Made by a program: the position numbers and the translations under genes. A stretch of DNA of 64,000 nucleotides, taken from the IMG/VR virus record IMGVR_UViG_3300031566_000016, positions 1-64,000 of that record; one strand, 5' to 3'. Numbering within the stretch: position 1 is the first letter of the stretch; every line of letters begins with the position of its first letter. This document shows, piece by piece, positions 4,922 to 19,947 of this stretch. The notes below the pieces were generated by a model. It was not told the DNA's origin. It searched no databases and saw only the letters and a list, made by a program, of their open reading frames with translations. The stretch comes from a virus.

Positions 4922-5042
4922 GGAAGCTCCCGCAGACGCCTGAAAGCTCCCCGGCACCCCGAGTGGAGGGGGGTAGCCCCACTTTTCTCCAGCGCAGGCC
5001 ACAGGCACGTCTGTACCCATGCAGGAGAGGCAGAACAGAGAA

Positions 5043-5070
5043 CGCCGCCCCGGCATAGGCCAGGGCGGCG
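5043..5070 (-). terminator. intrinsic terminator downstream of the small-membrane-protein cluster
   Basis: On the minus strand CGCCGCCCTGGC and GCCGGGGCGGCG form a 12-bp stem (one G-T pair) with a CTAT loop, followed by TTCTCTGTTCT. It separates the gene ending at 5098 from the promoter at 4897-4869, so a transcription unit ends here. Confidence 0.7.
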
Positions 5071-5097
5071 CAGATACATCATTCCGTGCGGCAAGCC

Positions 5098-5301
5098 TCA
5101 GAGCTTGAGGTCTTCCTTCACCTGCGCGGCGGTCGGCGTCTGGTGTTGGCACACGAAGCGCAGTGCCTTCCACACGAGGTCGAACGCCTTCTGGAAGGGC
5201 GTGATCTTGTACCCGGCACTGAGGGCCAGAGTGCAGTACAGCAGGGCGTCCTTCTTCTGGCGGTTGAGGTAGGACAGCATCATCGTTGTGGCCAGGCTCA
5301 T
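5098..5301 (-). CDS. small hypothetical protein (67 aa)
   Basis: This lysine-containing, helical protein (LSYLNRQKKDALLYCTLALSAGYKITPFQKAFDLVWKALRFV) begins six bases after the stop of the upstream membrane protein, with AGGGTGACC as SD. It is the last gene before the intrinsic terminator at 5043-5070. No family is recognised. Confidence 0.55.
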   Translation of the reverse strand: MSLATTMMLSYLNRQKKDALLYCTLALSAGYKITPFQKAFDLVWKALRFVCQHQTPTAAQVKEDLKL

Positions 5302-5307
5302 TTCAGG

Positions 5308-5625
5308 TCACCCTTCCTCTGGGTCGAGTGGAACGGATGGTGCGACTGCATAGGTCTTGCTCAGGATCTCCCACGGGCCGACAGCGAAGACCATCGCCAC
5401 TGCCCATTGCATCCAGAACTGCGGCGTGGTGCCGGTCACCACGATCGTCGTCGCGGCGGTAGCAGCGGCGACGGCCAGCAGCTTCGTGACCTTCGCGGCG
5501 GCGGTGTCGCTCAGCGGCCTGCCGGACCAATGGCATATCGCCTTGATGAGCGCGAACACAGCCATGACCACGAGTCCCTGAAGTGCGGCCTGCTGATCGG
5601 GCGGCAGTTGCGTATACCAGTCCAT
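5308..5625 (-). CDS. membrane protein, holin candidate (105 aa)
   Basis: Three hydrophobic segments are visible: about residues 17-33 (GLVVMAVFALIKAICHW), 49-64 (LLAVAAATAATTIVV) and 71-88 (WMQWAVAMVFAVGPWEIL), with a short acidic tail. Size, three spans and position among other tiny membrane proteins fit a class I holin, but holins are too diverse to assign by sequence alone. The start is supported by AAGGAGAACGCAC upstream. Confidence 0.55.
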   Translation of the reverse strand: MDWYTQLPPDQQAALQGLVVMAVFALIKAICHWSGRPLSDTAAAKVTKLLAVAAATAATTIVVTGTTPQFWMQWAVAMVFAVGPWEILSKTYAVAPSVPLDPEEG

Positions 5626-5659
5626 GTGCGTTCTCCTTTGCTCCAGAGTGTCCCGGCGG

Positions 5660-5764
5660 TCAATGCCGGGCTACGCTTACGATCACGTCCAGCACCGCGA
5701 CGAACACGGCGGCGGCAACGATGAACCCCACCAACTGCAACGCGTACCTCTGCAGCGTCGTCAT
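5660..5764 (-). CDS. single-span membrane mini-protein (34 aa)
   Basis: The ATG overlaps the upstream TGA (CCATGACG) and GAGGTGGGGG serves as SD. The product is almost entirely one hydrophobic helix (LQLVGFIVAAAVFVAVLDVIVSVA) flanked by short polar ends. It belongs to the cluster of four small membrane proteins at 5308-6397. Confidence 0.55.
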   Translation of the reverse strand: MTTLQRYALQLVGFIVAAAVFVAVLDVIVSVARH

Positions 5765-5919
5765 GGCCCCCACCTCGTAAAGCAGTAGTACCCGGCCAGC
5801 AGCGCCGCCAACCCCACCACGATCACACACCACAGTATCCGCAGCGCCACCCGCGCCATCGGGTCCTCGCGCTCAGGAGGCTCATCCGCGTCGGGCAGCA
5901 GCAGCGCCGGGGCGGTCAT
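5761..5919 (-). CDS. single-span membrane protein (52 aa)
   Basis: A polar, acidic and proline-rich N-terminus (about 25 residues) is followed by one span (LRILWCVIVVGLAALLAGYYCF) and a short TRWGP tail. It is coupled by ATGA to the 34-residue gene downstream and starts two bases beyond the end of the XhlA-like gene. A lysis-accessory role is likely from context only. Confidence 0.55.
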   Translation of the reverse strand: MTAPALLLPDADEPPEREDPMARVALRILWCVIVVGLAALLAGYYCFTRWGP

Positions 5920-5920
5920 G

Positions 5921-6397
5921 TCATTGCCCCGCTATCGTCTTCGCCGCCTCCGCTACCGTCGGTGAGAACCGGATGAACACGGTGCCTAGAAGCATAATGA
6001 GCGCCACGATGATTGGCCCCAGGAACGCCCGCCAGCTCTTGCCGTACTTCACGTCTTCAATCAACTTCGGCAGCGGCTTCGTGACCTGCTCGATGTCATG
6101 CAGCCGCTGCCCGTGGCCGTCCATGTCCCCGCGCAATGACTTCAGGGTCTCCACCTGCTCCGCCTGCACCCGGTCGCACCCGGCCATGCGCTGCAACATC
6201 AGCGGATGCCCATCGGACGCGCTATGCTTGTCAATGCGATCCAGCAACTCCCGGATGATGGCGCGGGCCTCGGTCTTGAACTCCTTCAAGATGGCGGTCT
6301 GCGCTTCCGTCTGCGCCACAATAGTGGCGACATCGGCTTTGATGTCCCCGTGTTGGCTACAGAAGGTGTACGCCCGAACCGGCGGCTGCTCTGCCAT
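5921..6397 (-). CDS. XhlA-like coiled-coil protein with C-terminal membrane span (158 aa)
   Basis: A long helical region (about residues 20-120) with heptad-like hydrophobics is followed by one span (FLGPIIVALIMLLGTVFIRF, about 125-145). XhlA-type hemolysin/holin partners of Gram-positive phages share this coiled coil plus C-terminal anchor, but are shorter. I placed the start at MAEQPPV; the frame is open 19 codons upstream and the SD is weak. It lies beside other small membrane proteins, so lysis is the best guess. Confidence 0.5.
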   Translation of the reverse strand: MAEQPPVRAYTFCSQHGDIKADVATIVAQTEAQTAILKEFKTEARAIIRELLDRIDKHSASDGHPLMLQRMAGCDRVQAEQVETLKSLRGDMDGHGQRLHDIEQVTKPLPKLIEDVKYGKSWRAFLGPIIVALIMLLGTVFIRFSPTVAEAAKTIAGQ

Positions 6398-6459
6398 GAT
6401 CCCGTACCCATGCCATGTATTGTGGGCAGTGCGTCGTCTCGCGGCTCGGCTCAACCCGG

Positions 6460-6630
6460 CTACTCCGGGCGCGGTCCGGCTTCAGCCTCCGCGCTCTCGT
6501 CGCCATCCCTCAGTATCTCGGCCAGCACCACCTCGGCCGGCTCCCGCGCCACGTCCCCCAGCGCGTTCACCCTCCGGCGCATCGCCCGCCCCAGCGCCAC
6601 AATCTCAGCTACCGCCGCCTCACGAGACAC
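6460..6630 (-). CDS. small helical protein (56 aa)
   Basis: The GTG at 6630 follows GGACGGAGGCCGCAG and overlaps the end of the glycosyltransferase gene by 11 bases. The product is an amphipathic helix rich in Ala, Arg and Glu (AVAEIVALGRAMRRRVNALGD...), ending in an acidic tail. No family is recognised. Confidence 0.45.
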   Translation of the reverse strand: MSREAAVAEIVALGRAMRRRVNALGDVAREPAEVVLAEILRDGDESAEAEAGPRPE

Positions 6631-7519
6631 CTGCGGCCTCCGTCCAACCTGCGGCCTCCCGCAACTCCCACACCCTCTCATCTCCGTTGACGACGTGCCC
6701 CATATACTCCGACAACCACTCCCGGTGCTTCAACACAATCCACTGTCGCATCAGGGGCCAGTCACCCTTCGTCCGCAGGCTGTCGTCGCGATCCCGCCTC
6801 CAACAGTACACTTTCGGCGAACAGTGTACCTTCAAGCCCCGAGAAAGGCAAGCCACAAGTAGCTCCGCATCCTCCGCCACAACCATGCTTTCGTCCAGCC
6901 AGAGGCCGCGCTCGATGCAGGCATTGCGGCGCAACGTCACCGCACAGGTGCCGCAACCAGTCGCTCCCACGACGTTGTGCGGCGTCACCGGCACCGCCAG
7001 GCTATCCTTCTCCCACTCCTGCGGGTGTCGGCGCCACTTGCGCTTCTGGCCGTAGATCAGCGACGCCCCGGTCGCCCGGAACTCCTCCAGCGTGTCCGCG
7101 ATCCGGTACTCCGGCATCATGTCGTCGGCATCCATGAAGATCAGGAACTCGCCGGACGCCTGCCGTATGGCATGGTTGCGCGCCGCAGATGCTCCCCGGT
7201 TGACCTTGTGCTGCAGGCACCTGGTCGAGATCCCCAGCCCGGACAAGTCCGCGAGGCAGTCCCAGGTATCGTCCGTGCTGGCGTCATCCACGATCACGAT
7301 TTCATTCGGCCGGCGCGTTTGCCACTCACAGGAACGCAGGGCCTCATACAGCGTCGTGGCGGCGTTGTAGACGGGGACGATGACAGAGACGGTGCCAGGG
7401 CTGGTGCGGCGGGTGTGGAGTTCCCACGGGTGCCAGGGAATGTAGGGAAGAAAGCCGCAGCGCGGGCGCATGGCGGTGAGGGGCGGCGTCAGCGAGCGGG
7501 GGATGCGTAGCCTACTCAT
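6620..7519 (-). CDS. family 2 (GT-A) glycosyltransferase (299 aa)
   Basis: Classic GT2 signatures are present: VSVIVPVYN near residues 45-52, IVDDAST near 76-82, NRGASAARNHAI near 108-118 and the DxD-like FMDADD near 128-133 that binds the metal-nucleotide-sugar. A 40-residue N-terminal leader carries IPRSLTPPLT, shared with the bifunctional glycosyltransferase at 14347-16455. The start is set by GGGAGGAC upstream of the second of two ATGs. It is the last glycosyltransferase of the 16.5-6.5 kb cluster. Substrate unknown; a phage or host-surface glycan is inferred. Confidence 0.85.
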   Translation of the reverse strand: MSRLRIPRSLTPPLTAMRPRCGFLPYIPWHPWELHTRRTSPGTVSVIVPVYNAATTLYEALRSCEWQTRRPNEIVIVDDASTDDTWDCLADLSGLGISTRCLQHKVNRGASAARNHAIRQASGEFLIFMDADDMMPEYRIADTLEEFRATGASLIYGQKRKWRRHPQEWEKDSLAVPVTPHNVVGATGCGTCAVTLRRNACIERGLWLDESMVVAEDAELLVACLSRGLKVHCSPKVYCWRRDRDDSLRTKGDWPLMRQWIVLKHREWLSEYMGHVVNGDERVWELREAAGWTEAAGVS

Positions 7520-7679
7520 CATCGTCCTCCCATGAGGCGATCCCCGCGCGCAGTTGCCGTACAAGGTCGTGGTCGCGGTCCCGCTCGCGGCGTCGGCCCT
7601 TCACCTTCGTCGCGGACTTCGCATAGCGCCGCCCGTTCTCCTGGCCATGCAGGCGTTCCGCCCTGTCTCGTGTCGGCAC
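7512..7679 (-). CDS. small, highly basic protein (55 aa)
   Basis: The GTG at 7679 follows CGGGAGGTGG. The product is rich in Arg and Lys (KVKGRRRERDRDHDLVRQLR) with an acidic end (WEDDDE). It may bind nucleic acid or another protein. Its stop lies within the start region of the GT2 gene. Confidence 0.45.
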   Translation of the reverse strand: MPTRDRAERLHGQENGRRYAKSATKVKGRRRERDRDHDLVRQLRAGIASWEDDDE

Positions 7680-7698
7680 TGCTACACCACCTCCCGAG

Positions 7699-7893
7699 TT
7701 ATCGCCCGCTGAGCCAATTACTGAACCTCGAACCAACGATCATCAGAAGCAGAACAGGGAACAGGACTACGATGAAAACCCTGTAGTCTGATACCGTGAA
7801 CTCGACCATTGGTGTCTGAAATGGATTGCGGAATCTGTCGTGCAGAAAACCAGCGAAGACACATGCCACGACACCTACCAGAATGTATAGCAC
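7699..7893 (-). CDS. two-span membrane protein (64 aa)
   Basis: The GTG at 7893 follows GGAGGTGGCATGAG. Two hydrophobic helices are clear, residues 1-16 (LYILVGVVACVFAGFL) and 39-57 (VFIVVLFPVLLLMIVGS), with a polar connector. It is embedded among glycosyltransferase genes, as is the similar two-span protein at 12552-12776. A role in membrane glycan handling is possible but unsupported. Confidence 0.55.
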   Translation of the reverse strand: MLYILVGVVACVFAGFLHDRFRNPFQTPMVEFTVSDYRVFIVVLFPVLLLMIVGSRFSNWLSGR

Positions 7894-7894
7894 C

Positions 7895-8860
7895 TCATGC
7901 CACCTCCGTCAGGAAATCTGCCCACTGTCCCGCGATCACGTCCAGGCGGTACGCTCCCGCCGCCTTCTTCCCCGCCTTCCCCATGTCCTTCCGCTTCGTG
8001 GCGTTCCCCATCAGTTCGTCCAGCGCCACCTCCCACTCTTCCGGCCCGTAGCACAGCCGCCCCGTCACCCCGTCCTCGATGGCCGCCCGGTAGCTGGGCA
8101 CATCGCTCACCACTACCGCCAGCCCCGCGGCCATCATGTTGACCGCCTTGTTGGCGCACTTGCACCAGCACCACTCGTTCTGGAACAGCGGTGCGATGCC
8201 GAGGTCGCACGTCGCCATGACCTCCAGTGCGCCCTCCACGCTCCACTCGTGGAACTCGGTCGGGTACGGCTTCGTGGCGACCCGCTTCTCGTTGCTCTTC
8301 ACGCACCCATCCCCGTGGTCCAGGTTCGACTTGCGCGAGGTGCAGAAGTGGACGGTGAACTCGTGGCGCTTCGCCAGCGCCTCCAGCACCGGGTCCAGGT
8401 CGCGAAAATATGTGATATTGTCGTGCATCCCCATCCAGAACAGGTGCAGGCCCTCGTGCTTCCTCGGCTTCACCGACCAGTACTGCGGCCCGACCGCCTG
8501 CTCGATCATGCGCACCGTCGGGTGCAGGCGTTCCAGGTGCTGCCCGAGGCGCGGCGACCCGGCGACGATGGCCGAGACGCGCGCCATGCCGGCGATGATC
8601 GTCTCCTTGGGCCCCGGCCAGGCGTCCGCGAAGGTCATGTCGTTGCAGTCGTAGACCACGACCGGCGCGGCCGCCAGGGCCTCCTCCAGCGCCCGCATGT
8701 TGTACTGCACCACGATGATGTCGGCGCGCTCCTTGCCGTCCCACTTGTCGGCGTCCCAGCCCTGGCGCCGCAGTTCCTCGTAGACGCGCATCCCGCGTTC
8801 CCTCGTTGTGGGCTCGCCCTCATCCTGAAACAGTCGCCAACGCACCTTCGGATTGCTCAT
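7895..8860 (-). CDS. GT-B fold glycosyltransferase, family 1/4-like (321 aa)
   Basis: The C-terminal half shows the nucleotide-sugar-binding pattern of GT1/GT4 enzymes: a 'CDLGIAPLFQ' segment, then NKAVNMMAAGLAVVVSDVPSY and GRLCYGPEEWEVAL with the final conserved helix. The N-terminal Rossmann-like half holds IIVVQYNMRALEEALAAAPVVVYD. ATGA overlap with the upstream KpsC/S-like gene fixes the start. It is a cytoplasmic sugar transferase, part of the 16.5-6.5 kb glycan cluster. Acceptor and donor cannot be read from sequence. Confidence 0.8.
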   Translation of the reverse strand: MSNPKVRWRLFQDEGEPTTRERGMRVYEELRRQGWDADKWDGKERADIIVVQYNMRALEEALAAAPVVVYDCNDMTFADAWPGPKETIIAGMARVSAIVAGSPRLGQHLERLHPTVRMIEQAVGPQYWSVKPRKHEGLHLFWMGMHDNITYFRDLDPVLEALAKRHEFTVHFCTSRKSNLDHGDGCVKSNEKRVATKPYPTEFHEWSVEGALEVMATCDLGIAPLFQNEWCWCKCANKAVNMMAAGLAVVVSDVPSYRAAIEDGVTGRLCYGPEEWEVALDELMGNATKRKDMGKAGKKAAGAYRLDVIAGQWADFLTEVA

Positions 8861-9945
8861 GCCGCGCCACCCTTCTGTCGTGCGATGATCTCCCGCGCCC
8901 GCTGCGTGAACTGCGCCGGCGCAATGTAGTACGCCAGCAGCGCCTCGATGTTCCGCTGCGGCGTCAGGCCCGCCAGCCGGAAACTCGGCTGCCCCAGGAA
9001 CGTCACCGGCACCCCGTGCATCCACGCCTCGATGCCCACCTGCGAGTTGATGGTCGCTACGTGGTCCACTTGCTCGAGCAGCGGATGCACCGCGAAGTCC
9101 ACCAGCCTGAAGTCCAGCGCCGCGCATTTCGCTTCCAACGCTGCGGGGCTCGTGAACCAGTCCGCCGGGTGCTTCTTGACGATGATCTGCTCATCGGCCT
9201 TGCGATGGATGTCCACCCAGTCCAGCAGCCCGTCGTTCGTGCAGATCGCGCCCGCCCGGAAGACCATGTTGGTGTCATAGGGCATCTGCAGCGGCACGAA
9301 GGTCGTGCGCCGGCCCTTAAGCGCCTGCCGCACCTGCCCTGGTGTCGTCAGCCGCTGCGGCTCGATGGCCTGGCTGGTCGCCAACGATAGCCAGTTCCGG
9401 TAGTCCTCATCACCCACAGTCATGCCCGCGTACAGCTCCAGGTCGCTGTGTCCCTCCGCCAGCCCCGTGCCGTCCACGATCAACATGCCGGGAAAGCTCG
9501 CCCGCTCCACGTAGATGATCGGAATGCCCCGTTCCCGCGCCCAACCCTTCGCGACCTCGTTGTACCAGCACCACTGGCTCCACAGCACCAGGGCATCATA
9601 GTGTTGTTGCTCCCATGCGCTCAGGGCCTGCCGCAGTGCCGACACCATCTCCAGCAGCGCCGGGGCGTACCACAGGAACTTTTCATTGAGCGGGAGGGCC
9701 AGCGCCCCGCAGGCCCGCTCGTATGACAGCGCGAGGATGTCCGGCAGCACCTCGCCCTGCGGTGTCGCCTCCACCCAGCGGTCGCGCAGGGCCAAGTGGT
9801 GCGCGCGTTTCGTCCAGTCATACAGCTCGCCCACCGCATCCTCGCGCACGGTCACGCAGTCCCAGGTCATGCCGGGGTTGCAGCGGGCGATCTGCCGGAA
9901 GCGCACCGCGGCGTTGCTATCAGCGGCGATGGCGAGTAGTCTCAT
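8857..9945 (-). CDS. KpsC/KpsS-like capsule polysaccharide transferase (362 aa)
   Basis: The C-terminal third has the pattern of capsule-biosynthesis KpsC/KpsS and LpsZ proteins (beta-Kdo transferases): IIVKKHPADW, a 'VDHVATINSQVGIEA' segment and GVPVTFLGQPSF. These known enzymes add linker sugars to lipid acceptors; whether this one uses Kdo is unknown. The start overlaps the stop of the upstream DNA methyltransferase (ATGA). Encoded on a phage between other glycosyltransferases, it may alter the host capsule or build a virion glycan. Confidence 0.65.
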   Translation of the reverse strand: MRLLAIAADSNAAVRFRQIARCNPGMTWDCVTVREDAVGELYDWTKRAHHLALRDRWVEATPQGEVLPDILALSYERACGALALPLNEKFLWYAPALLEMVSALRQALSAWEQQHYDALVLWSQWCWYNEVAKGWARERGIPIIYVERASFPGMLIVDGTGLAEGHSDLELYAGMTVGDEDYRNWLSLATSQAIEPQRLTTPGQVRQALKGRRTTFVPLQMPYDTNMVFRAGAICTNDGLLDWVDIHRKADEQIIVKKHPADWFTSPAALEAKCAALDFRLVDFAVHPLLEQVDHVATINSQVGIEAWMHGVPVTFLGQPSFRLAGLTPQRNIEALLAYYIAPAQFTQRAREIIARQKGGAA

Positions 9946-10712
9946 GCGAATGCTTCCTCCAGGGTCAGTTGCGCTTCGGTGGCCTCGCGCTTCTTCACGG
10001 CTTCCTCCACGCGGCGGCAGGCGATGTCGAAATACTCCTCGCTGATCTCGATGCCGATACCGCGCCTGCCGAGGAGTTCGGCGGCTACGAGGGTCGTGCC
10101 GCTGCCCATGAACGGGTCAAAGACCGTCTCATCTTCATACGTCACTGCTGACACGAGCAGAGAGAGCAGTTCCACGGGCTTCTCTGTTGGGTGGAGGTCC
10201 GTTCCCTGTCGAGTGACGTTGAGCACGTTGCCCAAGTCGCGCCGCACCATCGGCCTGCTCTTTCCATAGGTGAAGTGCAGAATGAGTTCGTGCTGGTTGC
10301 GGAAGTAGTTGCCCATGCCGAAGTGCTGCTTGTCCCACACCACGAGGCCCACTTGCCGCAGGTCCGCGCTCTCAATCGCCGCTGACAGTTGCGGGTACAT
10401 GCGCCAGTCAATGAAGCTCAGGAAGTGCGCCCCCTTGCTCATGGTGCGCTTCGTCAATAGGGCGAGTGACCGCATAAGCCAGACGAACCCCGTTGTAGTC
10501 AGGCAGTCGGATGCAAACCATGCGCTGTCTGCGGTCTCGCGGTTCATGGACTTGCGGACACCCTTCGACGCTTCGCGCCGAGTTCCGCTGCTGTACGGCG
10601 GGTCAGTAATCACCGCATCCACGCTGCCCGCCGCCAACGTCGGCAGGTATTCCAGACAGTCGCCGAGGATGAGCCGCTGCCCGCCGATCACCTCCTCCCG
10701 CAGCCCGTTCAT
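9942..10712 (-). CDS. DNA methyltransferase, beta-class layout, DPPY motif (256 aa)
   Basis: Motif IV DPPY lies at residues 37-40 and motif I DPFMGSGTT at about 210-218, with the target-recognition region between them, the beta-class order. DPPY suggests adenine-N6 methylation, though N4-cytosine is possible. HPTEKP before motif I is typical. Unexpectedly it sits inside the glycan cluster, coupled by ATGA overlaps to the radical SAM gene upstream and the KpsC/S-like gene downstream. No restriction enzyme is nearby, so an orphan or anti-restriction role is likely. Confidence 0.85.
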   Translation of the reverse strand: MNGLREEVIGGQRLILGDCLEYLPTLAAGSVDAVITDPPYSSGTRREASKGVRKSMNRETADSAWFASDCLTTTGFVWLMRSLALLTKRTMSKGAHFLSFIDWRMYPQLSAAIESADLRQVGLVVWDKQHFGMGNYFRNQHELILHFTYGKSRPMVRRDLGNVLNVTRQGTDLHPTEKPVELLSLLVSAVTYEDETVFDPFMGSGTTLVAAELLGRRGIGIEISEEYFDIACRRVEEAVKKREATEAQLTLEEAFA

Positions 10713-11965
10713 ATCTGCCGGGCCTCCTCGATGACTCTGTCCCACTCGCGTCTCGTGCAGTCCCCCAGCATCACCCTCCCGCTCTGGTGCAGGAACCCCG
10801 CCCACGACTGCGGCCGCTGCCCCGCCGGGATCATCTCCCACAGCTTCGTCCCCGGGTACGGCGTCAGCAGGCTCAGGCAGATCTCCGCGCCCTCGCCCTT
10901 GAGCCGCCGCGCCCACGCCAGCGTTGCCCGCATCTCCGCCACCGTCTCGCCCGGGAAGCCGAGTATCATGTAGAAGGCGACCGCCGCCACGCCCTTGCCC
11001 TTCAGTAGCGCCAACGCCGCCTCGGGGTCGCCCTCCTCCAGGTGCTTGCCGCTCAACTCCCGCCACCGCGGACTCGCGCTCTCCACACCCATGCACGCCT
11101 TCTCGCAGCCCCCGGCCGCCAACGCCTCCGCCAGTTCCTCGTCCACGTTCTGCAGCGCCATGTCCCCGATCCACTGGTAACCGCTGCCCGCCAGCGCCGC
11201 GCACACTGCGAGGCCATGCGCGCGGTTCACGCCGAAGCTATCGTCAATGATGCGCCCATGGGCGACGCCGAGGGCGTCCACCTCCGCGCGCACCCTCAGC
11301 GGGTCGCGCGTCCGCACTTTCGTCCCGAAGACCGCCGGCGCCGCGCAGTACGCGCAGGCATAGGGACACCCCCGCTGGGTGGCGATCATGCCACGCAGGA
11401 AGTCGGGGTACTTCTCGTGGCCGATCACGGCGTCGCGCGCGGGGAGGTAGCGGTCGAGGTCGTCATGTCCCAGTGAGAATAGCGGGTCTGTTTCCTGCGT
11501 CTCGAACGCGCTGGCTGCAAACTCCCAATCTCCTTCCCCCGCTACCACACAGTCAAAACAGCCCGACTCTGCCTCCTCGTCCGGCATCAGCGACGGGTGT
11601 ATCCCTCCCGCCACCGTCCTGATCCCCCGCCTCTTCGCCATCTTCGCGAATTGGTGCGCCGCCGCCCAGTCCGCCGTCGTGTAGCTGATCCCCACCACAT
11701 CCGGTTGCCACGAGTCGAGCAGGTCCCCGAACGGCGCGCAGATGTCGGCCGTCAGCGGCGCTACGTTCATCTCGCCCAGCACCACCGGCCCGTTGGGCAA
11801 CGGTTCTGGATTGGATACGTCTCCGTGGTAGATCAGGACCTCGTGCCCGCGCTCCTGCAGCATCGCGGCCACGTACATCGCGCCAAGGGGGTACGTCTGA
11901 TAGACCCGGCTACCGAGCAGGCTGGCAAAGTCAGGTTTGGCCAAAAGAACGCGGAGCTGCTTCAC
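10709..11965 (-). CDS. B12-binding-type radical SAM protein (418 aa)
   Basis: Residues 1-150 resemble the cobalamin-binding Rossmann domain (VVGISYTTADW, TVAGGIHPSLMPDE), though the base-off DxHxxG motif is not evident. The radical SAM core follows with C200-x3-C204-x2-C207 (RGCPYACAYC) for a 4Fe-4S cluster, a 'MGVESASPRWRELSGK' segment and GFPGET. Class B radical SAM enzymes of this layout methylate unactivated carbons or rearrange carbon skeletons. The GTG start overlaps the upstream methyltransferase stop (GTGA). Glycan or peptide tailoring is inferred from neighbours. Confidence 0.85.
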   Translation of the reverse strand: MKQLRVLLAKPDFASLLGSRVYQTYPLGAMYVAAMLQERGHEVLIYHGDVSNPEPLPNGPVVLGEMNVAPLTADICAPFGDLLDSWQPDVVGISYTTADWAAAHQFAKMAKRRGIRTVAGGIHPSLMPDEEAESGCFDCVVAGEGDWEFAASAFETQETDPLFSLGHDDLDRYLPARDAVIGHEKYPDFLRGMIATQRGCPYACAYCAAPAVFGTKVRTRDPLRVRAEVDALGVAHGRIIDDSFGVNRAHGLAVCAALAGSGYQWIGDMALQNVDEELAEALAAGGCEKACMGVESASPRWRELSGKHLEEGDPEAALALLKGKGVAAVAFYMILGFPGETVAEMRATLAWARRLKGEGAEICLSLLTPYPGTKLWEMIPAGQRPQSWAGFLHQSGRVMLGDCTRREWDRVIEEARQI

Positions 11966-12555
11966 GATAGTCCTTTCTTCACGATGTACAGGCTGTTTCC
12001 GTCCGCTGCCTCCGTGGAATGGGTGCGGTACTGAATCTCACAGTTGCTGAAGGACCCCAACTCGTCCCCGCGCGGCTGGTAGAAGCGTATCTGCGAGGCC
12101 CCGCGCCCCGCCATGAGCGCATCCCAGTCCGCCACGCTGTAGTCGCGCCCGTGGTGCCACTCGTTGAGCCCCTGGTGGACCGGCACAGACAGAAGCAGGG
12201 TCCCTCCTGGCGCCGTCAACTCCATGAGCTTGGCCAGTCCCGACTCCATGTCGTCGAGATGTTCCAGCGTCTCCAGGCAGACCACCGTGTCGAATGGGTC
12301 CTGTGCGCTCAGATCCTCGATGCGACTCTCGCGGAAGTGTACCGTCGGCCCGTGCCACTGGTAGGCCTCGCCAGACACGTCTACCGCCCACACCTCGCTG
12401 GCCACCTTTGCCAGCATGGCGCTGCCGTATCCGATCCCGCACCCCGCGTCGAGCACCCGCTTTCCCACGCACCACTTGAGCGCCCACACGTAGCGCACGA
12501 GGTGCTGCTGGATCGTCACGATGGAACTGCTGAAGGTCATCCGCTCGCCGGTCAT
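11962..12555 (-). CDS. class I SAM-dependent methyltransferase (197 aa)
   Basis: Motif I RVLDAGCGIGYGSAML lies at residues 33-48, followed by EVWAVDVSG (motif II), FDTVVCLETLEHL (motif IV/post) and APGGTLLLSVP (motif V). This UbiE/Methyltransf_11 pattern belongs to small-molecule or sugar O/N-methyltransferases, not DNA enzymes. SD GAGGTGAATC supports the start. It is one of three such genes between the tail proteins and the glycosyltransferases, suggesting methylated sugars. Confidence 0.85.
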   Translation of the reverse strand: MTGERMTFSSSIVTIQQHLVRYVWALKWCVGKRVLDAGCGIGYGSAMLAKVASEVWAVDVSGEAYQWHGPTVHFRESRIEDLSAQDPFDTVVCLETLEHLDDMESGLAKLMELTAPGGTLLLSVPVHQGLNEWHHGRDYSVADWDALMAGRGASQIRFYQPRGDELGSFSNCEIQYRTHSTEAADGNSLYIVKKGLS

Positions 12556-12776
12556 GATTCACCTCGCCCGGTATGCCACTGATCTCCCACCACGAACCAC
12601 CATAGGCCACAAATCATTGCCAACATGCTGACATCTCCCATGATAACAACTCCCCAAGCCTGCCAGCCATGACCTCTGGCTACATTTACTCCTACCCATA
12701 AGAGAATCATGGCGCAGATGGTGATAACCAGGATGGCCACCAGACTGACAACTCTTTCCGCATTAGGTGTTGCCAT
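12552..12776 (-). CDS. two-span membrane protein (74 aa)
   Basis: Two hydrophobic helices are visible: residues 10-30 (VSLVAILVITICAMILLWVG) and 43-62 (VVIMGDVSMLAMICGLWWFV). The ATG overlaps the upstream TAA (TAATG), and the stop overlaps the next ATG. Base composition is noticeably lower in GC than its neighbours, consistent with separate acquisition. No family is recognised. Confidence 0.6.
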   Translation of the reverse strand: MATPNAERVVSLVAILVITICAMILLWVGVNVARGHGWQAWGVVIMGDVSMLAMICGLWWFVVGDQWHTGRGES

Positions 12777-13339
12777 TATATCCGCGTCACCCTCTCTATT
12801 GGCAATACCCGCCCCACGTCATCCAGGAACTCCTCCACTGTCGGCCAGAAATGGAGGTGCCAGGGATTGCCCTCATCTTTGCCAGCAATCGGTGTCGTCA
12901 GGATGTACCGCGTGTGATCATGGCTGACGCCCAGGAATGCTTGCAGGAGCACGTCCATCTCGCGAATGTGCTCCAACACGTCAAGGCACACGACCACATC
13001 GAACGGCCCTATCCCAGCAGTCCATTCCGGCAGATTGAAGTCCCCCGCCACGAAGGTCACGCCCGGTGTCGGGTACAGCACCCGCGCCCACTGCACCGCA
13101 TAGTCCTGATCCACGGCTACCACCGGCCGCCGACTCTTCAGCGAGTAGATGCGCGCTGGCAGCCCGCACCCGCACCCAGCCTCCAAGACTCGGTCGCCCT
13201 CGTTGATGAGTTCCGCCGCCCGCTGCCAATGGATGAAGTGCGAGTTGACGTTGCTCACCCCACCCGTGAACGCCTCCGGCACCATGCGCTCCCCGTCGGC
13301 CCACTGCTTCATGCCCTCCAGGTACTCTTCCTGTGTCAT
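12776..13339 (-). CDS. class I SAM-dependent methyltransferase (187 aa)
   Basis: Motif I RVLEAGCGCGLPARIY begins near residue 50, followed by PVVAVDQDYA, FDVVVCLDVLEHI and a terminal beta hairpin. Of three consecutive ATGs I take the third, spaced 7 bases from AAAGGAG. The pattern is that of small-molecule methyltransferases. Paralogues lie on both sides in the operon, but the proteins differ outside the motifs, so distinct targets are likely. Confidence 0.8.
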   Translation of the reverse strand: MTQEEYLEGMKQWADGERMVPEAFTGGVSNVNSHFIHWQRAAELINEGDRVLEAGCGCGLPARIYSLKSRRPVVAVDQDYAVQWARVLYPTPGVTFVAGDFNLPEWTAGIGPFDVVVCLDVLEHIREMDVLLQAFLGVSHDHTRYILTTPIAGKDEGNPWHLHFWPTVEEFLDDVGRVLPIERVTRI

Positions 13340-13341
13340 CA

Positions 13342-14115
13342 TCATCTCCTTTCCCAGATATCCCAACCCGTGTGCGGCTGTTGTTCCGGCTTCCACTCAT
13401 ACCGATACGCCAAGTCCAGGGCGCACGTCACGGCCTCCGGCGCAAAGTTCTTGTTCTCCTGGTGCCCATCAAACTCCGGCCGGGTCCAGTCCAGCCGCGT
13501 GTAGTTCGTCAGGAACAGCCCACCCGAGGGCAACGCCTCCATCATCTTCGGAAAGAGCCATCGGATGCCCGCGACGTGCTCGAAGGCCGTGACCTCGATG
13601 ATGAGTGCGGTGTCGCTCGTCACCTGCAGGGAAGCATCGTCGCCCTGGGCCGCGAGCACGATCTCATGCTTGACGCCCGCCTGCTGTAACTGCCAGGCCG
13701 CGAAGTACAGCGGCAGCGGGTTGATGTCCACCAGCCGCACTGTGGGGCACGTCAGGCGGCTGGCGAAGTACAGCGACGCATCCACCCAGGGCCCACAGCC
13801 AAAGTCCATGATCTCGGCGTCCTCCCGACTCCCACACAGCAGATCCCCGATGCTCTTGGCATAGAGGCCCAGGCGCAGGGCGCTATCCGGGCGCATCCGC
13901 TCCAGCCCGGGGTCCACCATGCTGAGTACGTGTGTCATCTGTAGCCCATAGGAGGCAGTTGCCCGGTCGCCCGCCTCCCACTGGGCGATCAGGGCCTCGG
14001 GGATGCCGAACTCCCGCAACTGCTGGCGCTTGCGGTCGTGGTAATTCGCGCCCCCCAGGTGATTGTTGAAGAACTCCCATCCCGCGGCCTCGTCCCCGAC
14101 GATGACCCGTCTCAT
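13342..14115 (-). CDS. class I SAM-dependent methyltransferase (257 aa)
   Basis: Motif I is IMDFGCGPWVDASLYFA near residues 102-118, followed by VRLVDINPLPLYFA and the later TALIIEVTAFEHVAG and LPSGGLFLTNY. A helical N-terminal domain of about 95 residues precedes the fold. ATGA overlap with the upstream zinc-ribbon gene sets the start. It is the first of the three SAM methyltransferases in transcription order. Confidence 0.75.
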   Translation of the reverse strand: MRRVIVGDEAAGWEFFNNHLGGANYHDRKRQQLREFGIPEALIAQWEAGDRATASYGLQMTHVLSMVDPGLERMRPDSALRLGLYAKSIGDLLCGSREDAEIMDFGCGPWVDASLYFASRLTCPTVRLVDINPLPLYFAAWQLQQAGVKHEIVLAAQGDDASLQVTSDTALIIEVTAFEHVAGIRWLFPKMMEALPSGGLFLTNYTRLDWTRPEFDGHQENKNFAPEAVTCALDLAYRYEWKPEQQPHTGWDIWERR

Positions 14116-14354
14116 GCGGTCCCCTCCGACACCAGGTGGTTGCCCGGGCCCGGCCCGGTGTCGCCACGCTCTGTCCACCGTTCAACAGTGCCGTCTGCCC
14201 GCAGAAGATCACCGCATTCATCGCAATGACGATTGGTGTCTGTCTTGAAGATTGTTGGGCGAAAAGGCCTCTGCCTGCGCCAATGCCCTCCTACGCCAGG
14301 ATGCTCTGTCCAGACGAAGGGGCGTCTCTTGCAGCTACAAATCATCTCAGCCAT
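14112..14354 (-). CDS. small zinc-ribbon protein (80 aa)
   Basis: It has CSC near residue 5 and CDECGDLL near residue 45, with a basic, aromatic connector (RRPFVWTEHPG, RRQRPFRPT), consistent with a split zinc ribbon. I place the start at MAEMICSC, after GGAGGTGCGATGGCAG, within the last codons of the bifunctional glycosyltransferase. The stop overlaps the next ATG. Function unknown. Confidence 0.5.
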   Translation of the reverse strand: MAEMICSCKRRPFVWTEHPGVGGHWRRQRPFRPTIFKTDTNRHCDECGDLLRADGTVERWTERGDTGPGPGNHLVSEGTA

Positions 14355-16455
14355 CTGCCATCGCACCTCCTGCCATTACTCGGTCCACAATGGCCATCCA
14401 CTGTCGCTGCTCCCGCTCCCACGTCCGCTCCCGCGTCAGCCGCACCCCGTTGCGTGCCAGCTTCTCCCGCAGCGTCGGTTCCTCGAACACGCGCGTCACC
14501 GCCGCCACGATCCCTGCCGTGATCTCCTGCCCCAGCGCCGGCCTCGTCTTCGTGTCCATCCCGCGCGCGATGAACTCCGCGGTCGGGATGTTCGGCACCA
14601 GCAGCAAGTCCTCATCGTCCACCGCCACGTCGCTCACGCCGATCGGCGTCGCCACCAGCGGCGTCCCGCACGCCATGGCCTCCAGATCGGTCAGACTGAA
14701 GCCCTCGATCAGCGACGGCCGCACGAAGCACGAGACGCTGTTAAGCAACCTTCGCAGTTCGTTCGGATCGTAGGTCTTCACGTGCCGCACCTTGCACGGC
14801 CACCTCGGCGCCGTCTGCCCCACCACCACGACCTCCAGGTCTGCATACCGTCGCGCCAACTCCAGCACCGCCGCCTCCGCATAGTCCTGCCCCGTGAACC
14901 ATACCGGGGCGTTTTTGCGAATCATCATCAACGAGTGCGGCCACTTGCGCTCTAGAAACCAGTCGGGGTAGAAGATCAGATTGTCCACCGCGTTGTCAAT
15001 CTGCCCCGCGATCTCCATGCCGTATTCCTCGGCGAAGCCGCGCATGTGGTTGGCGATGATGACATGCTGGTAGCCGGGGGTGCGGAAGTTGGCCTCCACC
15101 GTTTTCGTAGCCTCGATGTCCCACTTCGGCTCGTCGCTCTGGATCAACGCCAGCCGGTGCGAGGCCTTGATCTTCGCCCCGATGGGCAGCGTCGCATGGT
15201 AGTTCGCCACTACCATGTCGTAGGGCGGTTCGATCGTGTTCTGCGTCAGCCGCCGCACGAAACTCCAATCGGTCCATTCGCCCCGCTTCCACTCGTTGAA
15301 CGAGTTCACCGACACTTCCCATCCCGCCTCGTACATCGCGTGCATCATGTGGTAGCACACCTTCACACCACCATGACACCCGAGCGAAGCCATCATCCAC
15401 AGTACCCGTCGCGGCTTCTCAGGCCCGCGTGGAGCGACTTTCAGCACCGAGTAGGGCACAGGGGCCATCGGAAAGGTACTTAGGTTCGCGTGCCCGTAGT
15501 CCGGTATCGCCGCATAGCCTCGCCGGTCCTCCCCATAGTGGCAGCACATCACCTGCGGGTCCAGGTAGAGCTGGTGCCCCAGCGCCGCCGCCTCCGCGCA
15601 AAGATGGTCGTCCTCGCCGCCGCCCCCGTCCACGATCCCCGTCAGTTCCTCCGGCTGCCAGTGTACCTGCTCCAGCATCTCGCGCTTCATCAGCAGACAC
15701 CCGAACCCGGACATGGCGATCTTACGCAACCCCTCGGTCGCGATCTGCTGCGGTCGCAGTAGCGGTTGCCCGAAGCCATCTCGGGCAATCACGCTGTCCG
15801 GCTTGCGGCTCGGCACCACGCCGCTCACCAGAGGCTGCCCATGCGCCGCCATGGCCTCTGCGGCGTCCTCAGGCACCACCACGTCGCAGTCCACCCACAA
15901 GGTGAACTCTCCCCCCACCTTGAGGTCCAGCAGCGCCCTGCGCGTCTCCTCGCGAAGCAGGGCGACGATCCCGCTGTGCCACTGGTTGTCGCGGCTGACG
16001 CTCAGGTCCACCTCGATGCTGCTCAGGGGCCCGTCCCAGTGGCGCGCCACCAGCCGTCGGCTCAGCTTGCTCGGGCCGTTGTAGGTGACGTGGAGCACCT
16101 TGTCGCCCTCCCAACGCAGGCGCCGAAAGGCCACGAGCACCTCGGGCAAGACGTAGGCCTTGGCGTCGGTCACGATGGTTGTGATGATGAGGGGATTGGT
16201 GAGGTCGGCAGGAAGGCTGACCTGCGGAACCCCGGTGCGCACGACGGCTACGATGCTGGGGCCGCTGCCCGGCTTGCCGCCAGGAGTGCGCGGGGGCGAT
16301 GACGATGTCAGCGGTGGCGTCAGCGAGAGCATACGCGGTATGCTCATCTTCGACTCCTTGGTCTCGGGCTGTGGCGGTGGTGCGGCGGGTGTGCCTACGA
16401 CGGACCTGGTGTGGCGGCGCGGCGGGGGCCTGCTACTGCGGCTGTTGCGGCGCAT
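14347..16455 (-). CDS. bifunctional glycosyltransferase, GT-A domain plus GT4-like GT-B domain (702 aa)
   Basis: The N-terminal domain (about residues 75-320) is GT-A: FTLWVDCDVVVPEDAAEA holds the DxD, and GGGEDDHLCAEAAALGHQLYLDP is a typical GT2/Anp1-like acceptor loop. The C-terminal domain (about 345-700) is GT4: GCHGGVKVCYHMMHAMYEAG at its start and EGFSLTDLEAMACGTPLVA with the E-x7-E loop. The start at 16455 has AAAGGAGA upstream; an internal ATG at 16347 with AAGGAGTCG is an equally good alternative. From there the leader reads MSIPRMLSLTPPLT, a motif shared with the GT2 at 6620-7519. Confidence 0.85.
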   Translation of the reverse strand: MRRNSRSSRPPPRRHTRSVVGTPAAPPPQPETKESKMSIPRMLSLTPPLTSSSPPRTPGGKPGSGPSIVAVVRTGVPQVSLPADLTNPLIITTIVTDAKAYVLPEVLVAFRRLRWEGDKVLHVTYNGPSKLSRRLVARHWDGPLSSIEVDLSVSRDNQWHSGIVALLREETRRALLDLKVGGEFTLWVDCDVVVPEDAAEAMAAHGQPLVSGVVPSRKPDSVIARDGFGQPLLRPQQIATEGLRKIAMSGFGCLLMKREMLEQVHWQPEELTGIVDGGGGEDDHLCAEAAALGHQLYLDPQVMCCHYGEDRRGYAAIPDYGHANLSTFPMAPVPYSVLKVAPRGPEKPRRVLWMMASLGCHGGVKVCYHMMHAMYEAGWEVSVNSFNEWKRGEWTDWSFVRRLTQNTIEPPYDMVVANYHATLPIGAKIKASHRLALIQSDEPKWDIEATKTVEANFRTPGYQHVIIANHMRGFAEEYGMEIAGQIDNAVDNLIFYPDWFLERKWPHSLMMIRKNAPVWFTGQDYAEAAVLELARRYADLEVVVVGQTAPRWPCKVRHVKTYDPNELRRLLNSVSCFVRPSLIEGFSLTDLEAMACGTPLVATPIGVSDVAVDDEDLLLVPNIPTAEFIARGMDTKTRPALGQEITAGIVAAVTRVFEEPTLREKLARNGVRLTRERTWEREQRQWMAIVDRVMAGGAMADG

Positions 16456-16485
16456 GGGGGCAAGGTCTCCTTTTCAGTAGAGCGG

Positions 16486-18027
16486 CTATGAGACGGGCGC
16501 GTCAGTGACAGGTAAGAAGCTTCCGCGAAAGCCATACGGGATGGCGAACATGGGGTTGGTGGCCACGTCCGCCGCGGTGGCAGCGTAGCCAAACAAGAAC
16601 CCTGCCTCGCAGATCGTTCCTTTGTATGGCGTATAACCAAATCCCAGTACGCCCGACCCCACGCCTACATGCAAGTTACCTGTGCCTCCGGTTGGGACAC
16701 CCGTAGTCGGCACGAAGTTGCCAAGTACCAGACCATCCATGTAGCAAGCCCCGCTACCCGCTTCCAGGTCGGCCGACAGAACGAAGCGATGGCCCATTCC
16801 ATCCTCCACGTTGGACAAAAGGTCGAACAATACCTGGAACGATATTTCGTTGGCTGAGAACACTATCCACACAGTCTCAATCGGCGGGTCTCCGTGTGGT
16901 GGGCCTTCCAACAACGACAGGTTGACCAATCTACCGAGGCCATCGGAACCAGTATAGTGCATGATCGTTTCGTTGCCCCACTGCATAGAACCCTTCTTGA
17001 CATCGACGAGAAATGTCATCTTTCGCAGGTCCCAAGGCGCTGGTCCAGGCGGAACATCGCAGTATTGTGCCAATACAGACTCGCCCTGCGGGAATGAGAG
17101 ACCACTTGATGTCCATCCCGATGTCCACCAATTCAACAATGTACCATTCAACGACGGGTCGGAGGCGTTCGCAACCAATGTTGGGTCTGACGTGTCCTCC
17201 GCGCACCAGCTCCAGAACGCCGCGTACTGCGCCAGCGGGTTCCCCGTGTCAATCGGCGTCCACCACGGTGGCCGCGCGCTCCCGATATCCCCCCCGTACC
17301 GCCGGTTGTTCATCCGGTCGAACGTCTTCGGCACTGCCACCGACCGCGCCGCCCCCGGCCACGCCCCCGGCGTCAACTCCAGTTCCACCAGGCCGCCCAA
17401 CCCCTCTGGGTACACCGCCACCACCAGCCCGCCCGACACCAACTCCCCCGCCGTCACCACCGACCCGGGATCCCCTGGCTGAAGTTGCCCCGCCACCGTC
17501 AGCCGCCCCTCCCCCGCCGTCACGACCACGCCGCCATCTGGGACGATCTCCACCGGCGTATGCGAGACCAACTCCGCATCGCCGGCCGCCACGACGGACC
17601 CTGGGCCATCCGGCGCGACCACCACCGGCGTGTGCGACACCAACTCGCCTTCCCCCGCCGTCACCACCACTCCGCCATCCGGCACCACCCGCGTCACCGG
17701 CATCTCGATCACGAACGGCGCCGGCTCAGTCACGCCCTCATCCGTCCAGCCCACCAGCAATAGGTCCGGGCCCGTCCCCTCCAGATACCAGCGCCTCTTC
17801 GCTGGCGCCGTCGCGAGCACCACGCCCGGCGTCGCATTGTTGCCGGGATCCCACTGTACCGCCGTCGCCTCAAAGTTGGTAGGGTTCACGTAGCCGAAGA
17901 AGCCGACATCGGCTACCACCGCGCCTATCGCCGGCCAGTAGCCGAAGGTCTGGTAGTCGCCCTGAACTCCCGACTCGGGAGCCGGGAGTTCTATGACATC
18001 GGTAAGGGCGGTCAGCGTCAGGGCCAT
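16486..18027 (-). CDS. tail appendage/receptor-binding-type protein with internal repeats (513 aa)
   Basis: Residues about 110-180 contain three degenerate copies of a 27-residue unit (VPDGGVVVTAGEGELVSHTP and relatives). The C-terminal 270 residues look like a concanavalin/LamG-type jelly roll (WTSSGLSFPQGESVL, GRLVNLSLLEG, GHRFVLSADLEAGSGACYMDG), a common carbohydrate-binding module on phage fibres. It is the last virion gene before the glycan cluster. Likely a surface-exposed fibre or appendage, by position. Confidence 0.65.
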   Translation of the reverse strand: MALTLTALTDVIELPAPESGVQGDYQTFGYWPAIGAVVADVGFFGYVNPTNFEATAVQWDPGNNATPGVVLATAPAKRRWYLEGTGPDLLLVGWTDEGVTEPAPFVIEMPVTRVVPDGGVVVTAGEGELVSHTPVVVAPDGPGSVVAAGDAELVSHTPVEIVPDGGVVVTAGEGRLTVAGQLQPGDPGSVVTAGELVSGGLVVAVYPEGLGGLVELELTPGAWPGAARSVAVPKTFDRMNNRRYGGDIGSARPPWWTPIDTGNPLAQYAAFWSWCAEDTSDPTLVANASDPSLNGTLLNWWTSGWTSSGLSFPQGESVLAQYCDVPPGPAPWDLRKMTFLVDVKKGSMQWGNETIMHYTGSDGLGRLVNLSLLEGPPHGDPPIETVWIVFSANEISFQVLFDLLSNVEDGMGHRFVLSADLEAGSGACYMDGLVLGNFVPTTGVPTGGTGNLHVGVGSGVLGFGYTPYKGTICEAGFLFGYAATAADVATNPMFAIPYGFRGSFLPVTDAPVS

Positions 18028-18033
18028 GGCGTC

Positions 18034-19122
18034 TTACTCTTCAGCCACGAGATTCTGCACGTAGGCTTCGGCGGTCTCTGGAATGACCACGCGGGTCCAT
18101 GTCTTCTGCTTGCCCGGCGTCGCCAACACGAAGCTCACGACGGCACCCTGGCGCACCTGCCGATACGCCGCACCATCCACGAGCGCCATGCTGGTCCCGC
18201 CGCGGACGATCTCCACCGGCGTCCCATCCGGGTCGTAGACCTCGGGCGAGAAAACCTCGGAGACGTAGAAGGTCCCCGTCGTATCATCCGGCCCCTCAGT
18301 GCCGGCGAGGCACCAGACAGTGCAGTAGCCGTCCGGGGTGGGTTCCGGCGTAGCCGCCTTGGGCACCACGAAGGCCCCGTCGGTCGGCGTCGTCACGCTG
18401 CCATCGGCCGCCACTACGAGCGTGTACGGGTTGGCGGGCGTGTATCCAGCCGGCGCCATGATCGTGACCGCATAGGTGCCTGGGTCGAGACCCCAGGCGC
18501 TCGCGAAGGTCCCATCGGTCTCGCTGCTCTGGACCGAGAGACCCGGGATGGTCAGCCGGGCGGCGGGCACCGGATCTCCGCTGTCGTCTTCCACGGTCAA
18601 CGGCACCGGGAACTCGCCGTCCCCGAAGGCGGCAGCCACGACCGCGGCGGCATTCGCGGCAGCGGTCGGCACCGCGTCCACAGCGGCCTGTAGCGTCACC
18701 TGTGCTGCCCGCAGGGCCACGAGCGTCTCATCGGTCCACCCGTCGCCCATGAGCGCCACGACGAGATTGCCGATGGCAGTCACCGCGAGGCTCGTAGCCA
18801 GTCCGCTCACCGGCGCGTCGAGGAACTCCGCCCGCGCCTTCGTGTAGTCCGCGTCCGGCACCACCGTCAGCGGCAGAATCACCACGTCGGGAGTCGCGCT
18901 CACGCCCTGAATCGTCACGCACTCCGCCGTCATCTCCGCTGCCGTCAGCAGCAGCGAGCAGACGCCGTTCTCCACGTCAACAGGAGCATTGGTAGCCGCC
19001 GCCGCCGCGCCGTCGCGCACGAGCCGGATGGTATGGTTCGCGGCATCAGCAAGTGCTGGCGCATTGTTGTCCACGTCCCACGCGACGTAGTGCGCAATGA
19101 AGGCCTGTCCGTAGAGGGCCAT
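18034..19122 (-). CDS. virion structural/fibre protein with an Ig-like domain (362 aa)
   Basis: The N-terminus (ALYGQAFIAHYVAWDVDNN) reads like a Pro/Thr-light beta domain. An alanine-rich helix follows at about residues 130-165. Then comes a carboxypeptidase-regulatory-like beta sandwich (PLTVEDDSGDPVPAARLTIPG...DGTFASAWGLDPGTYAVTI) and a beta C-terminus. SD GGAGCGTGAGGACGC precedes the ATG. Its position between fibre genes supports a tail-appendage role. Confidence 0.55.
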   Translation of the reverse strand: MALYGQAFIAHYVAWDVDNNAPALADAANHTIRLVRDGAAAAATNAPVDVENGVCSLLLTAAEMTAECVTIQGVSATPDVVILPLTVVPDADYTKARAEFLDAPVSGLATSLAVTAIGNLVVALMGDGWTDETLVALRAAQVTLQAAVDAVPTAAANAAAVVAAAFGDGEFPVPLTVEDDSGDPVPAARLTIPGLSVQSSETDGTFASAWGLDPGTYAVTIMAPAGYTPANPYTLVVAADGSVTTPTDGAFVVPKAATPEPTPDGYCTVWCLAGTEGPDDTTGTFYVSEVFSPEVYDPDGTPVEIVRGGTSMALVDGAAYRQVRQGAVVSFVLATPGKQKTWTRVVIPETAEAYVQNLVAEE

Positions 19123-19137
19123 GCGTCCTCACGCTCC

Positions 19138-19947
19138 TTAGGTCGCGACCGCGCTGATGGCGGGCTGCCACTGCGTGTCCTGATCCGGCGTGAGACCTGC
19201 CGCCAGAGTCAGCTTGATCCATACGCCCTGCCACTCATCGGCGGCGAGGTTGCCGTCCTCGGCGTCCCCGGCGACATGGGCTGCGCCCTCAGAGGCGTGT
19301 TCACCCCAGGAGTAGGTGCCGCCCGTGGTCGGTTCCGTGACGCGATTCGCCGTCGTCTCAGACCCACCCGTGAGCGTCACGTCGCCGCTCATCTCGCAGT
19401 CCATCGTGAGGTAGGCCCCGGCATCCTGTGCCAGCCACACCTTCGCCTCGATGGCGGCATCACTGGCGTGGTCATTGCCCACGAAGACCTTCTCGTACAG
19501 GTCCTTGCTGGCGCCACCGACCGCGTTGGCCTTCGCCAGGATGAACATGCGGGCCGCGCCGCGCTCCCCGATGGGAATGGTGTGGATCGCCGCTGCCGTC
19601 GTGTTGCCTGTGACCGCAATCGTCCCGTTGGCATCCGAGGCCAGCACGAGGCTCACGAGGTGCAGGTACGTGTTAGTCGAGACCTTGGGCGTCACGCCGG
19701 TCAGGGCGAACGTCTCGGTCGCCCAGGTGCCGTCCGGGGCATAGCCCATGAGTGTGCAGTTCTGAGTGTCCGCAGCGGAGTCCGAGGTCAACTTCACCTG
19801 CTCGCCGCTGCCGGTGTTCATGGCGTCGGCATAGGTGCGGTCAATCAGTTGCATCTTCGGATCGAGCGCCCCTCCGCTGGTGCCGGTGTCCGCAACGGGC
19901 CGGCTGGCGGCGAGGTAGAACTTGAGGTCGGCGTCGGCGACTGGCAT
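19138..19947 (-). CDS. virion structural/appendage protein (269 aa)
   Basis: The protein starts MPVADADLKFYLAAS and is beta-rich throughout, alternating Thr/Val/Gly stretches with segments such as GTIAVTGNTTAAAIHTIPIG. SD GGAGGTTAGTCCC precedes the ATG. No named family. Its location and composition match minor virion proteins of tail-fibre modules. Confidence 0.55.
   Translation of the reverse strand: MPVADADLKFYLAASRPVADTGTSGGALDPKMQLIDRTYADAMNTGSGEQVKLTSDSAADTQNCTLMGYAPDGTWATETFALTGVTPKVSTNTYLHLVSLVLASDANGTIAVTGNTTAAAIHTIPIGERGAARMFILAKANAVGGASKDLYEKVFVGNDHASDAAIEAKVWLAQDAGAYLTMDCEMSGDVTLTGGSETTANRVTEPTTGGTYSWGEHASEGAAHVAGDAEDGNLAADEWQGVWIKLTLAAGLTPDQDTQWQPAISAVAT

What the first reader, a model, noticed from the sequence alone, without database searches (positions are those of the whole stretch)
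6460..16455. A ten-kilobase phage glycan-building and methylating operon
Between virion fibre genes and lysis-like genes, one leftward run encodes a GT-A/GT4 fusion, three class I SAM methyltransferases, a B12-type radical SAM enzyme, a DNA methyltransferase, a KpsC/S-like transferase, a GT-B enzyme, a GT2 and two small membrane proteins. Most genes overlap by four bases, so they are made together. Established knowledge: phages use glycosyltransferases to modify DNA, O-antigen or virions. A set with four transferases plus four SAM-dependent carbon/heteroatom methylators is more than any single such role needs. I infer a dedicated, methylated glycan, on the virion or on the host surface. It is the best candidate here for an undescribed system.
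Basis: partly seen in the sequence, partly recalled or inferred. Interest (0 to 1): 0.75.

Follow-up and report, generated by a model that had tools for sequence, protein, structure and literature searches.

The report
Phage virion-glycan cassette with radical enzyme
An uncultured tailed phage carries, among its late virion genes, a tightly packed set of sugar-adding, methylating and vitamin-B12-type radical enzymes that most likely builds an elaborately modified sugar coat on the phage particle; a core of this set recurs in the same gene order in a second phage whose capsid and packaging genes show no detectable similarity.

Summary
From 16455 down to 6620 one leftward unit encodes a GT-A/GT4 fusion, three class I methyltransferases, a B12-binding radical SAM enzyme, an N6/N4 DNA methyltransferase, a Capsule_synth-family transferase, a GT-B enzyme, a GT2 and small membrane proteins, joined by seven 4-bp overlaps. 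A second viral contig (L008, 43.6 kb, own portal and terminase-like gene) carries GT4–MT–MT–rSAM–GT-B in the same order, plus a sugar epimerase; its rSAM is 53% identical. The two phages share little else detectable. More distant viral B12-rSAM genes sit with GTs in 45 of 79 loci, against 0 of 80 random viral loci, and in those checked they lie inside head or tail gene modules. There is no flippase-like membrane protein, C5-cytosine methyltransferase or thymidylate synthase, which disfavours O-antigen export and DNA hypermodification. Best reading: a late-expressed cytoplasmic pathway that decorates virion proteins, a more elaborate variant of known virus self-glycosylation. One correction: the rSAM's nearest solved relative is AprD4, a sugar dehydratase, so "carbon methylator" is unproven. 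No product has been shown experimentally.

The parts
14347..16455 (-). GT-A/GT4 fusion glycosyltransferase (702 aa; possible start 16347)
   Evidence: PF13692/PF00534 at residues 521-631; GT-A half matches phage GT-A family; L008 has a GT4 in the same place
   Evidence: ORF overlaps the start of the next gene by 4 bp; no test of function
13342..14115 (-). class I SAM methyltransferase-like protein (MT3)
   Evidence: no family hit; hhalign 91% to MT profile, controls <1%; single-sequence model poor, pLDDT 40
12776..13345 (-). class I SAM methyltransferase (MT2)
   Evidence: PF13489 8e-11; 36% identical to L008 MT directly upstream of its rSAM
12552..12776 (-). small membrane protein (74 aa)
   Evidence: two hydrophobic stretches by inspection; no family hit
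11962..12555 (-). class I SAM methyltransferase (MT1)
   Evidence: PF13489 3e-16
10709..11965 (-). B12-binding radical SAM enzyme (GTG start, CX3CX2C motif)
   Evidence: PF02310, PF04055; 53% identical to L008; model pLDDT 84.6, best PDB match AprD4
9942..10712 (-). N6/N4 DNA methyltransferase, probably not part of glycan synthesis
   Evidence: PF01555 1e-32; phrog_67 1e-57
8857..9945 (-). Capsule_synth (KpsC/KpsS-like) glycosyltransferase
   Evidence: PF05159 1e-17
7895..8860 (-). GT-B glycosyltransferase
   Evidence: PF13692 2e-9; homologue directly after rSAM in L008, 26% over 337 aa, E 3e-27
7699..7893 (-). small membrane protein (64 aa), two predicted TM segments
   Evidence: hydropathy
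6620..7522 (-). GT2 glycosyltransferase
   Evidence: PF00535 2e-31; phrog_841 GtrB-like 3e-14
5042..5071 (-). terminator-like hairpin (13 pairs, 11 GC) that may close the late unit
   Evidence: the number of terminator-like sites in the region is at chance level, this one is the strongest

Best explanation
The unit is a late-expressed cytoplasmic glycan pathway that decorates the phage's own virion proteins (capsid, tail or fibre). Inferred mechanism: one transferase (the GT-A/GT4 fusion or GT2) primes a virion protein using host nucleotide sugars. The other GT domains extend the chain. The class I methyltransferases cap hydroxyl or amino groups with O/N-methyl groups. The B12-type radical SAM enzyme alters a sugar carbon, either by C-methylation or by AprD4-like deoxygenation. 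Shown here: enzyme families, tight gene linkage, a core conserved in order in a second phage, recurrence of rSAM with GT/MT genes inside phage structural modules, and absence of membrane export machinery. Not shown: acceptor, sugars and the reaction of any enzyme. The DNA methyltransferase probably acts on DNA and merely shares the transcript.
For: Same-order core GT4-MT-MT-rSAM-GT-B plus NAD-epimerase in L008, between fibre-like and portal genes. The two phages share only this cassette, a tape-measure fragment and one small protein. Window and L008 rSAM form a two-member clade (100% SH-aLRT). 45/79 viral rSAM loci hold a GT and 26 a class I MT, against 0/80 random viral loci; single-sequence searches agree. 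rSAM/GT islands lie among head and tail genes in L043 (terminase, portal, MCP), L022 (MCP, tape measure) and L014 (tape measure, baseplate). A related GT-A lies two genes after the MCP in MW202711. No polytopic membrane protein other than the tape measure in either genome. Gap of 30 bp to the preceding structural gene, no minus-strand promoter-like site within 5000-19500. Precedents: mycobacteriophage capsid/tail glycosylation (PMC12363180); PBCV-1 GT + methyltransferase capsid glycan (PMC9614988).
Against: No virion protein is known to be glycosylated here. There is no sugar-nucleotide synthesis gene in the window cassette, so host sugars must be used. GT2 has a GtrB-like PHROG match, a family that acts on host O-antigen. 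Two small membrane proteins of unknown role could point to a membrane-bound acceptor. The promoter scan covers sigma-70 consensus only. The random control is not matched for contig length or genome region.
Confidence: 0.55

Rival explanations
1. The enzymes remodel the host cell surface (O-antigen, capsule or teichoic acid), blocking superinfection or hiding the infected host, as Gtr seroconversion systems do.
For: GT2 has a GtrB-like PHROG hit and the Capsule_synth transferase family makes capsule linkers in bacteria; two small membrane proteins.
Against: No GtrA/GtrC-like, flippase, polymerase or ligase-like polytopic protein; the genes lie in the late unit beside virion genes, here and in L008, L014, L022, L043.
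Confidence: 0.22
2. DNA hypermodification: the GTs and tailoring enzymes build sugars on modified bases of the phage genome.
For: Virus-encoded GTs are reported to hypermodify DNA with diverse glycans (cited in PMC12619734); a DNA methyltransferase lies in the same operon.
Against: No C5-cytosine methyltransferase (PF00145) and no thymidylate-synthase homologue (PF00303) in the record, with working controls; no TET/JBP hit, though the control was silent. The operon's DNA methyltransferase is of the N6/N4 type, which gives no sugar acceptor.
Confidence: 0.08
3. The cassette makes a diffusible or lipid-linked glycoside (natural-product-like), for example a host-modifying or competitor-directed metabolite.
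For: The rSAM's closest named families belong to antibiotic/RiPP/lipid pathways (AprD4, ApyD, PhpK, HpnR); Capsule_synth-type transferases can act on lipid acceptors.
Against: No carrier, synthase or transporter genes seen among the window's annotated genes; repeated placement with virion genes.
Confidence: 0.1
4. A loose pile-up of unrelated accessory genes without joint function.
For: Accessory members differ: DNA MTase, Capsule_synth, GT2, MT3 and the membrane proteins are missing in L008.
Against: Core order conserved, seven 4-bp overlaps, strong enrichment of GT/MT genes beside viral rSAM genes.
Confidence: 0.05

Closest known systems
Mycobacteriophage virion glycosylation (Che8, Corndog, Myrna)
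   Same: Phage-encoded GTs glycosylate capsid and tail proteins (PMC12363180; primary paper not held); window MCP has its closest isolate matches among Mycobacterium phages
   Different: No B12-rSAM relative in 50,697 phage records at E<=1e-3; far more tailoring enzymes here; glycosylation not shown here
Chlorovirus PBCV-1 capsid N-glycan pathway (A064R, A061L)
   Same: Virus GT domains plus class I methyltransferases build an O-methylated capsid glycan (PMC9614988)
   Different: Eukaryotic algal virus; no radical SAM step described in the passages read; no homology tested
GtrAB(C) O-antigen seroconversion
   Same: GT2 enzyme with similarity to the GtrB PHROG
   Different: No GtrA/GtrC-like polytopic membrane proteins
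AprD4 radical SAM 1,2-diol dehydratase (apramycin)
   Same: Best PDB match by sequence and by fold (1.4e-20; TM 0.77) and acts on an aminosugar (PMC5461906)
   Different: AprD4 shows CX3CX3C in the alignment, the window CX3CX2C; NCBIfam AprD4 score 87 against cut-off 500
Class B radical SAM sugar methylases (GenK, GenD1)
   Same: B12-binding + radical SAM architecture, carbon methylation of sugars (PMC5461906)
   Different: No direct comparison made; solved class B methylases (TsrM, CysS, TokK) and OxsB match less well than AprD4

Membership tests
Phage virion self-glycosylation systems | phage-encoded glycosyltransferases | tested here: met
   GT2, GT-B, GT-A/GT4, Capsule_synth
Phage virion self-glycosylation systems | covalent glycan on capsid or tail protein | not testable with these tools
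   needs virion mass spectrometry
Phage virion self-glycosylation systems | GT genes tied to virion genes (supportive, not strictly defining) | tested here: met
Gtr O-antigen conversion | polytopic GtrA flippase and GtrC membrane transferase | tested here: not met
   no such membrane protein in the record
GT-based DNA hypermodification | enzyme producing a hydroxymethylated or otherwise primed base | tested here: not met
   no PF00145 or PF00303 with ringing controls; TET search uninformative
B12-binding radical SAM superfamily | PF02310 + PF04055 with CX3CX2C | tested here: met
AprD4 family diol dehydratase | AprD4 equivalog score and CX3CX3C motif | tested here: not met
   87 bits against cut-off 500; CX3CX2C
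Class B radical SAM methyltransferase | methylcobalamin-dependent C-methylation | not testable with these tools
   fold shared with several such enzymes, activity unknown
Class I SAM methyltransferase | Rossmann SAM-binding domain | tested here: met
   MT1 and MT2 by Pfam; MT3 by hhalign only, its model was uninformative

The most novel reading that the evidence does not exclude
Tailed phages have repeatedly built virion-glycan pathways that include a B12-type radical SAM step, giving C-methylated or deoxygenated sugars on phage particles: a chemistry not so far reported, to my knowledge, for any viral glycan.
Probability: 0.4. Interest if true: 0.75.

Novelty: new variant of a known kind. Interest (0 to 1): 0.5.

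Why it matters
Phage particles are usually treated as bare protein. If this reading is right, several lineages of uncultured phages coat their virions with sugars tailored by chemistry best known from antibiotic biosynthesis, which would affect adsorption, stability and recognition. It also gives a small set of genes whose product can be tested directly in a laboratory host.

Tried and rejected
Single-protein viral scans with the rSAM and terminase found nothing; an rSAM alignment with plasmid homologues was needed to reach L008. Re-scans with the window/L008 rSAM and GT-B pairs found only L008 again. Bacterial genome scans found no close rSAM relative: nothing with A3, and at most 34% identity over most of the 121-aa core with A7, against 68% between window and L008 (shorter segments reach 42%, and one 18-residue stretch 67%). 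MT3 structure prediction failed for lack of relatives. The TET/JBP searches cannot be read as absence, as no control rang. I considered that the GT/MT neighbours of viral rSAM genes might be background; random viral loci rejected this, with the caveat that some IMG/VR contigs may be cellular.

Full report
What is there. The window lies in a 75,153-base virus record with terminase, portal, major capsid and tape measure genes. Pfam confirms GT2, GT-B, Capsule_synth, GT4, N6/N4 DNA methyltransferase, two class I methyltransferases and a B12-binding radical SAM enzyme. The third methyltransferase is below all family thresholds but matches a methyltransferase profile at 91% probability while four control profiles give under 1%. 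Inspection of starts gives seven 4-bp overlaps and one 1-bp overlap, and adds a small Cys-rich ORF at 14112-14345. The gap to the preceding structural gene is 30 bp; no minus-strand promoter-like site was seen between 5000 and 19500, and a 13-pair terminator-like hairpin lies at 5071-5042. The number of terminator-like sites is at chance level, so this is only suggestive.

Is the association real? Yes. A viral scan with an rSAM alignment returned L008 (IMGVR_UViG_3300044996_000126, 43.6 kb) with 53% identity over the full length. Its genes run GT4, MT, MT, rSAM, GT-B, NAD-epimerase, then a terminase-like gene and a T4-type portal. This is the window's order, with homologues for MT2 (36%), rSAM (53%), GT-B (26%, E 3e-27) and, more weakly, GT4 (25%). 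One L008 methyltransferase has an in-frame stop. Comparing all ORFs of the two records, the only other shared sequences are a tape-measure stretch and a small protein at 5101-5307. So the cassette core is conserved while terminase, portal and capsid are not detectably alike. In a tree of 90 rSAM proteins the window and L008 form a fully supported pair far from the rest (quick method; the careful search did not finish).

How general is it? Among 79 viral loci with a B12-rSAM gene, 45 also hold a GT2/GT4, 26 a class I methyltransferase and 25 an SDR; in 80 random viral loci (757 kb) the same profiles found none. Searches with single window proteins agree (GT2 6 against 0, MT1 13 against 0). The profiles were trained on the rSAM loci, and the loci differ in length, so the ratio is not exact. 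Islands in L043, L022 and L014 lie among head and tail genes identified by PHROGs, and L008's lies beside a portal gene. The tree places these rSAMs in different clades, which suggests repeated recruitment. In isolates the feature is rare: no match to the window rSAM at E<=1e-3 in 50,697 phage records.

What does it do? Two features point to virion decoration: position within late structural modules, and the lack of any polytopic membrane protein other than the tape measure in both phages, so no flippase, polymerase or GtrA/GtrC-like protein. DNA hypermodification is disfavoured by the absence of C5-cytosine methyltransferase and thymidylate synthase homologues with working controls; the TET search is uninformative. 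Host-surface modification remains the main rival.

The radical SAM enzyme. Its model is confident (pLDDT 84.6). The best solved match is AprD4, a 1,2-diol dehydratase of the aminosugar paromamine (TM 0.77; sequence 1.4e-20), ahead of the methylases MgmA, TsrM, CysS and TokK, and of OxsB. It is not an AprD4 orthologue (motif CX3CX2C against CX3CX3C). Both C-methylation and deoxygenation of a sugar are therefore open.

Relation to known systems. Capsid and tail glycosylation by phage GTs is known in mycobacteriophages (PMC12363180), and one Rhodococcus phage study infers the same from a GT plus a methyltransferase (PMC13313380). PBCV-1 shows virus GTs with methyltransferases making an O-methylated capsid glycan (PMC9614988). 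I found no paper in the library describing B12-rSAM genes as part of a phage glycan cassette; that is a limited search. I therefore file it as a new variant of a known kind.

Noticed in passing
window 42360-42794 and 49274-50788: Two further DNA methyltransferases (Dam-type PF05869 beside the terminase, and an N6/N4 type), so the phage carries three in all.
   Followed up: partly
window 5101-5307: Small protein just before the terminator-like hairpin that has a homologue (39% over 57 aa) in the otherwise dissimilar L008 phage.
   Followed up: no
L005 9818-10447 (MW202711): A GT-A related to the N-terminal half of the window fusion lies two genes after the major capsid gene of a Manatee Spring phage.
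   Followed up: partly
L011 1874-3988 and L022 3783-5855: Related phages carry ~700-aa glycosyltransferase fusions upstream of their rSAM; in L022 the second half looks like GT9.
   Followed up: partly
L043 7467-13701: GT-A, rSAM, MT, GT2, second rSAM and SDR follow directly on terminase, portal and capsid genes.
   Followed up: partly
L004 2076-11039: A Citrobacter plasmid locus with five radical SAM genes beside GH3-like, N-acetyltransferase and desaturase genes, unrelated to this finding.
   Followed up: no
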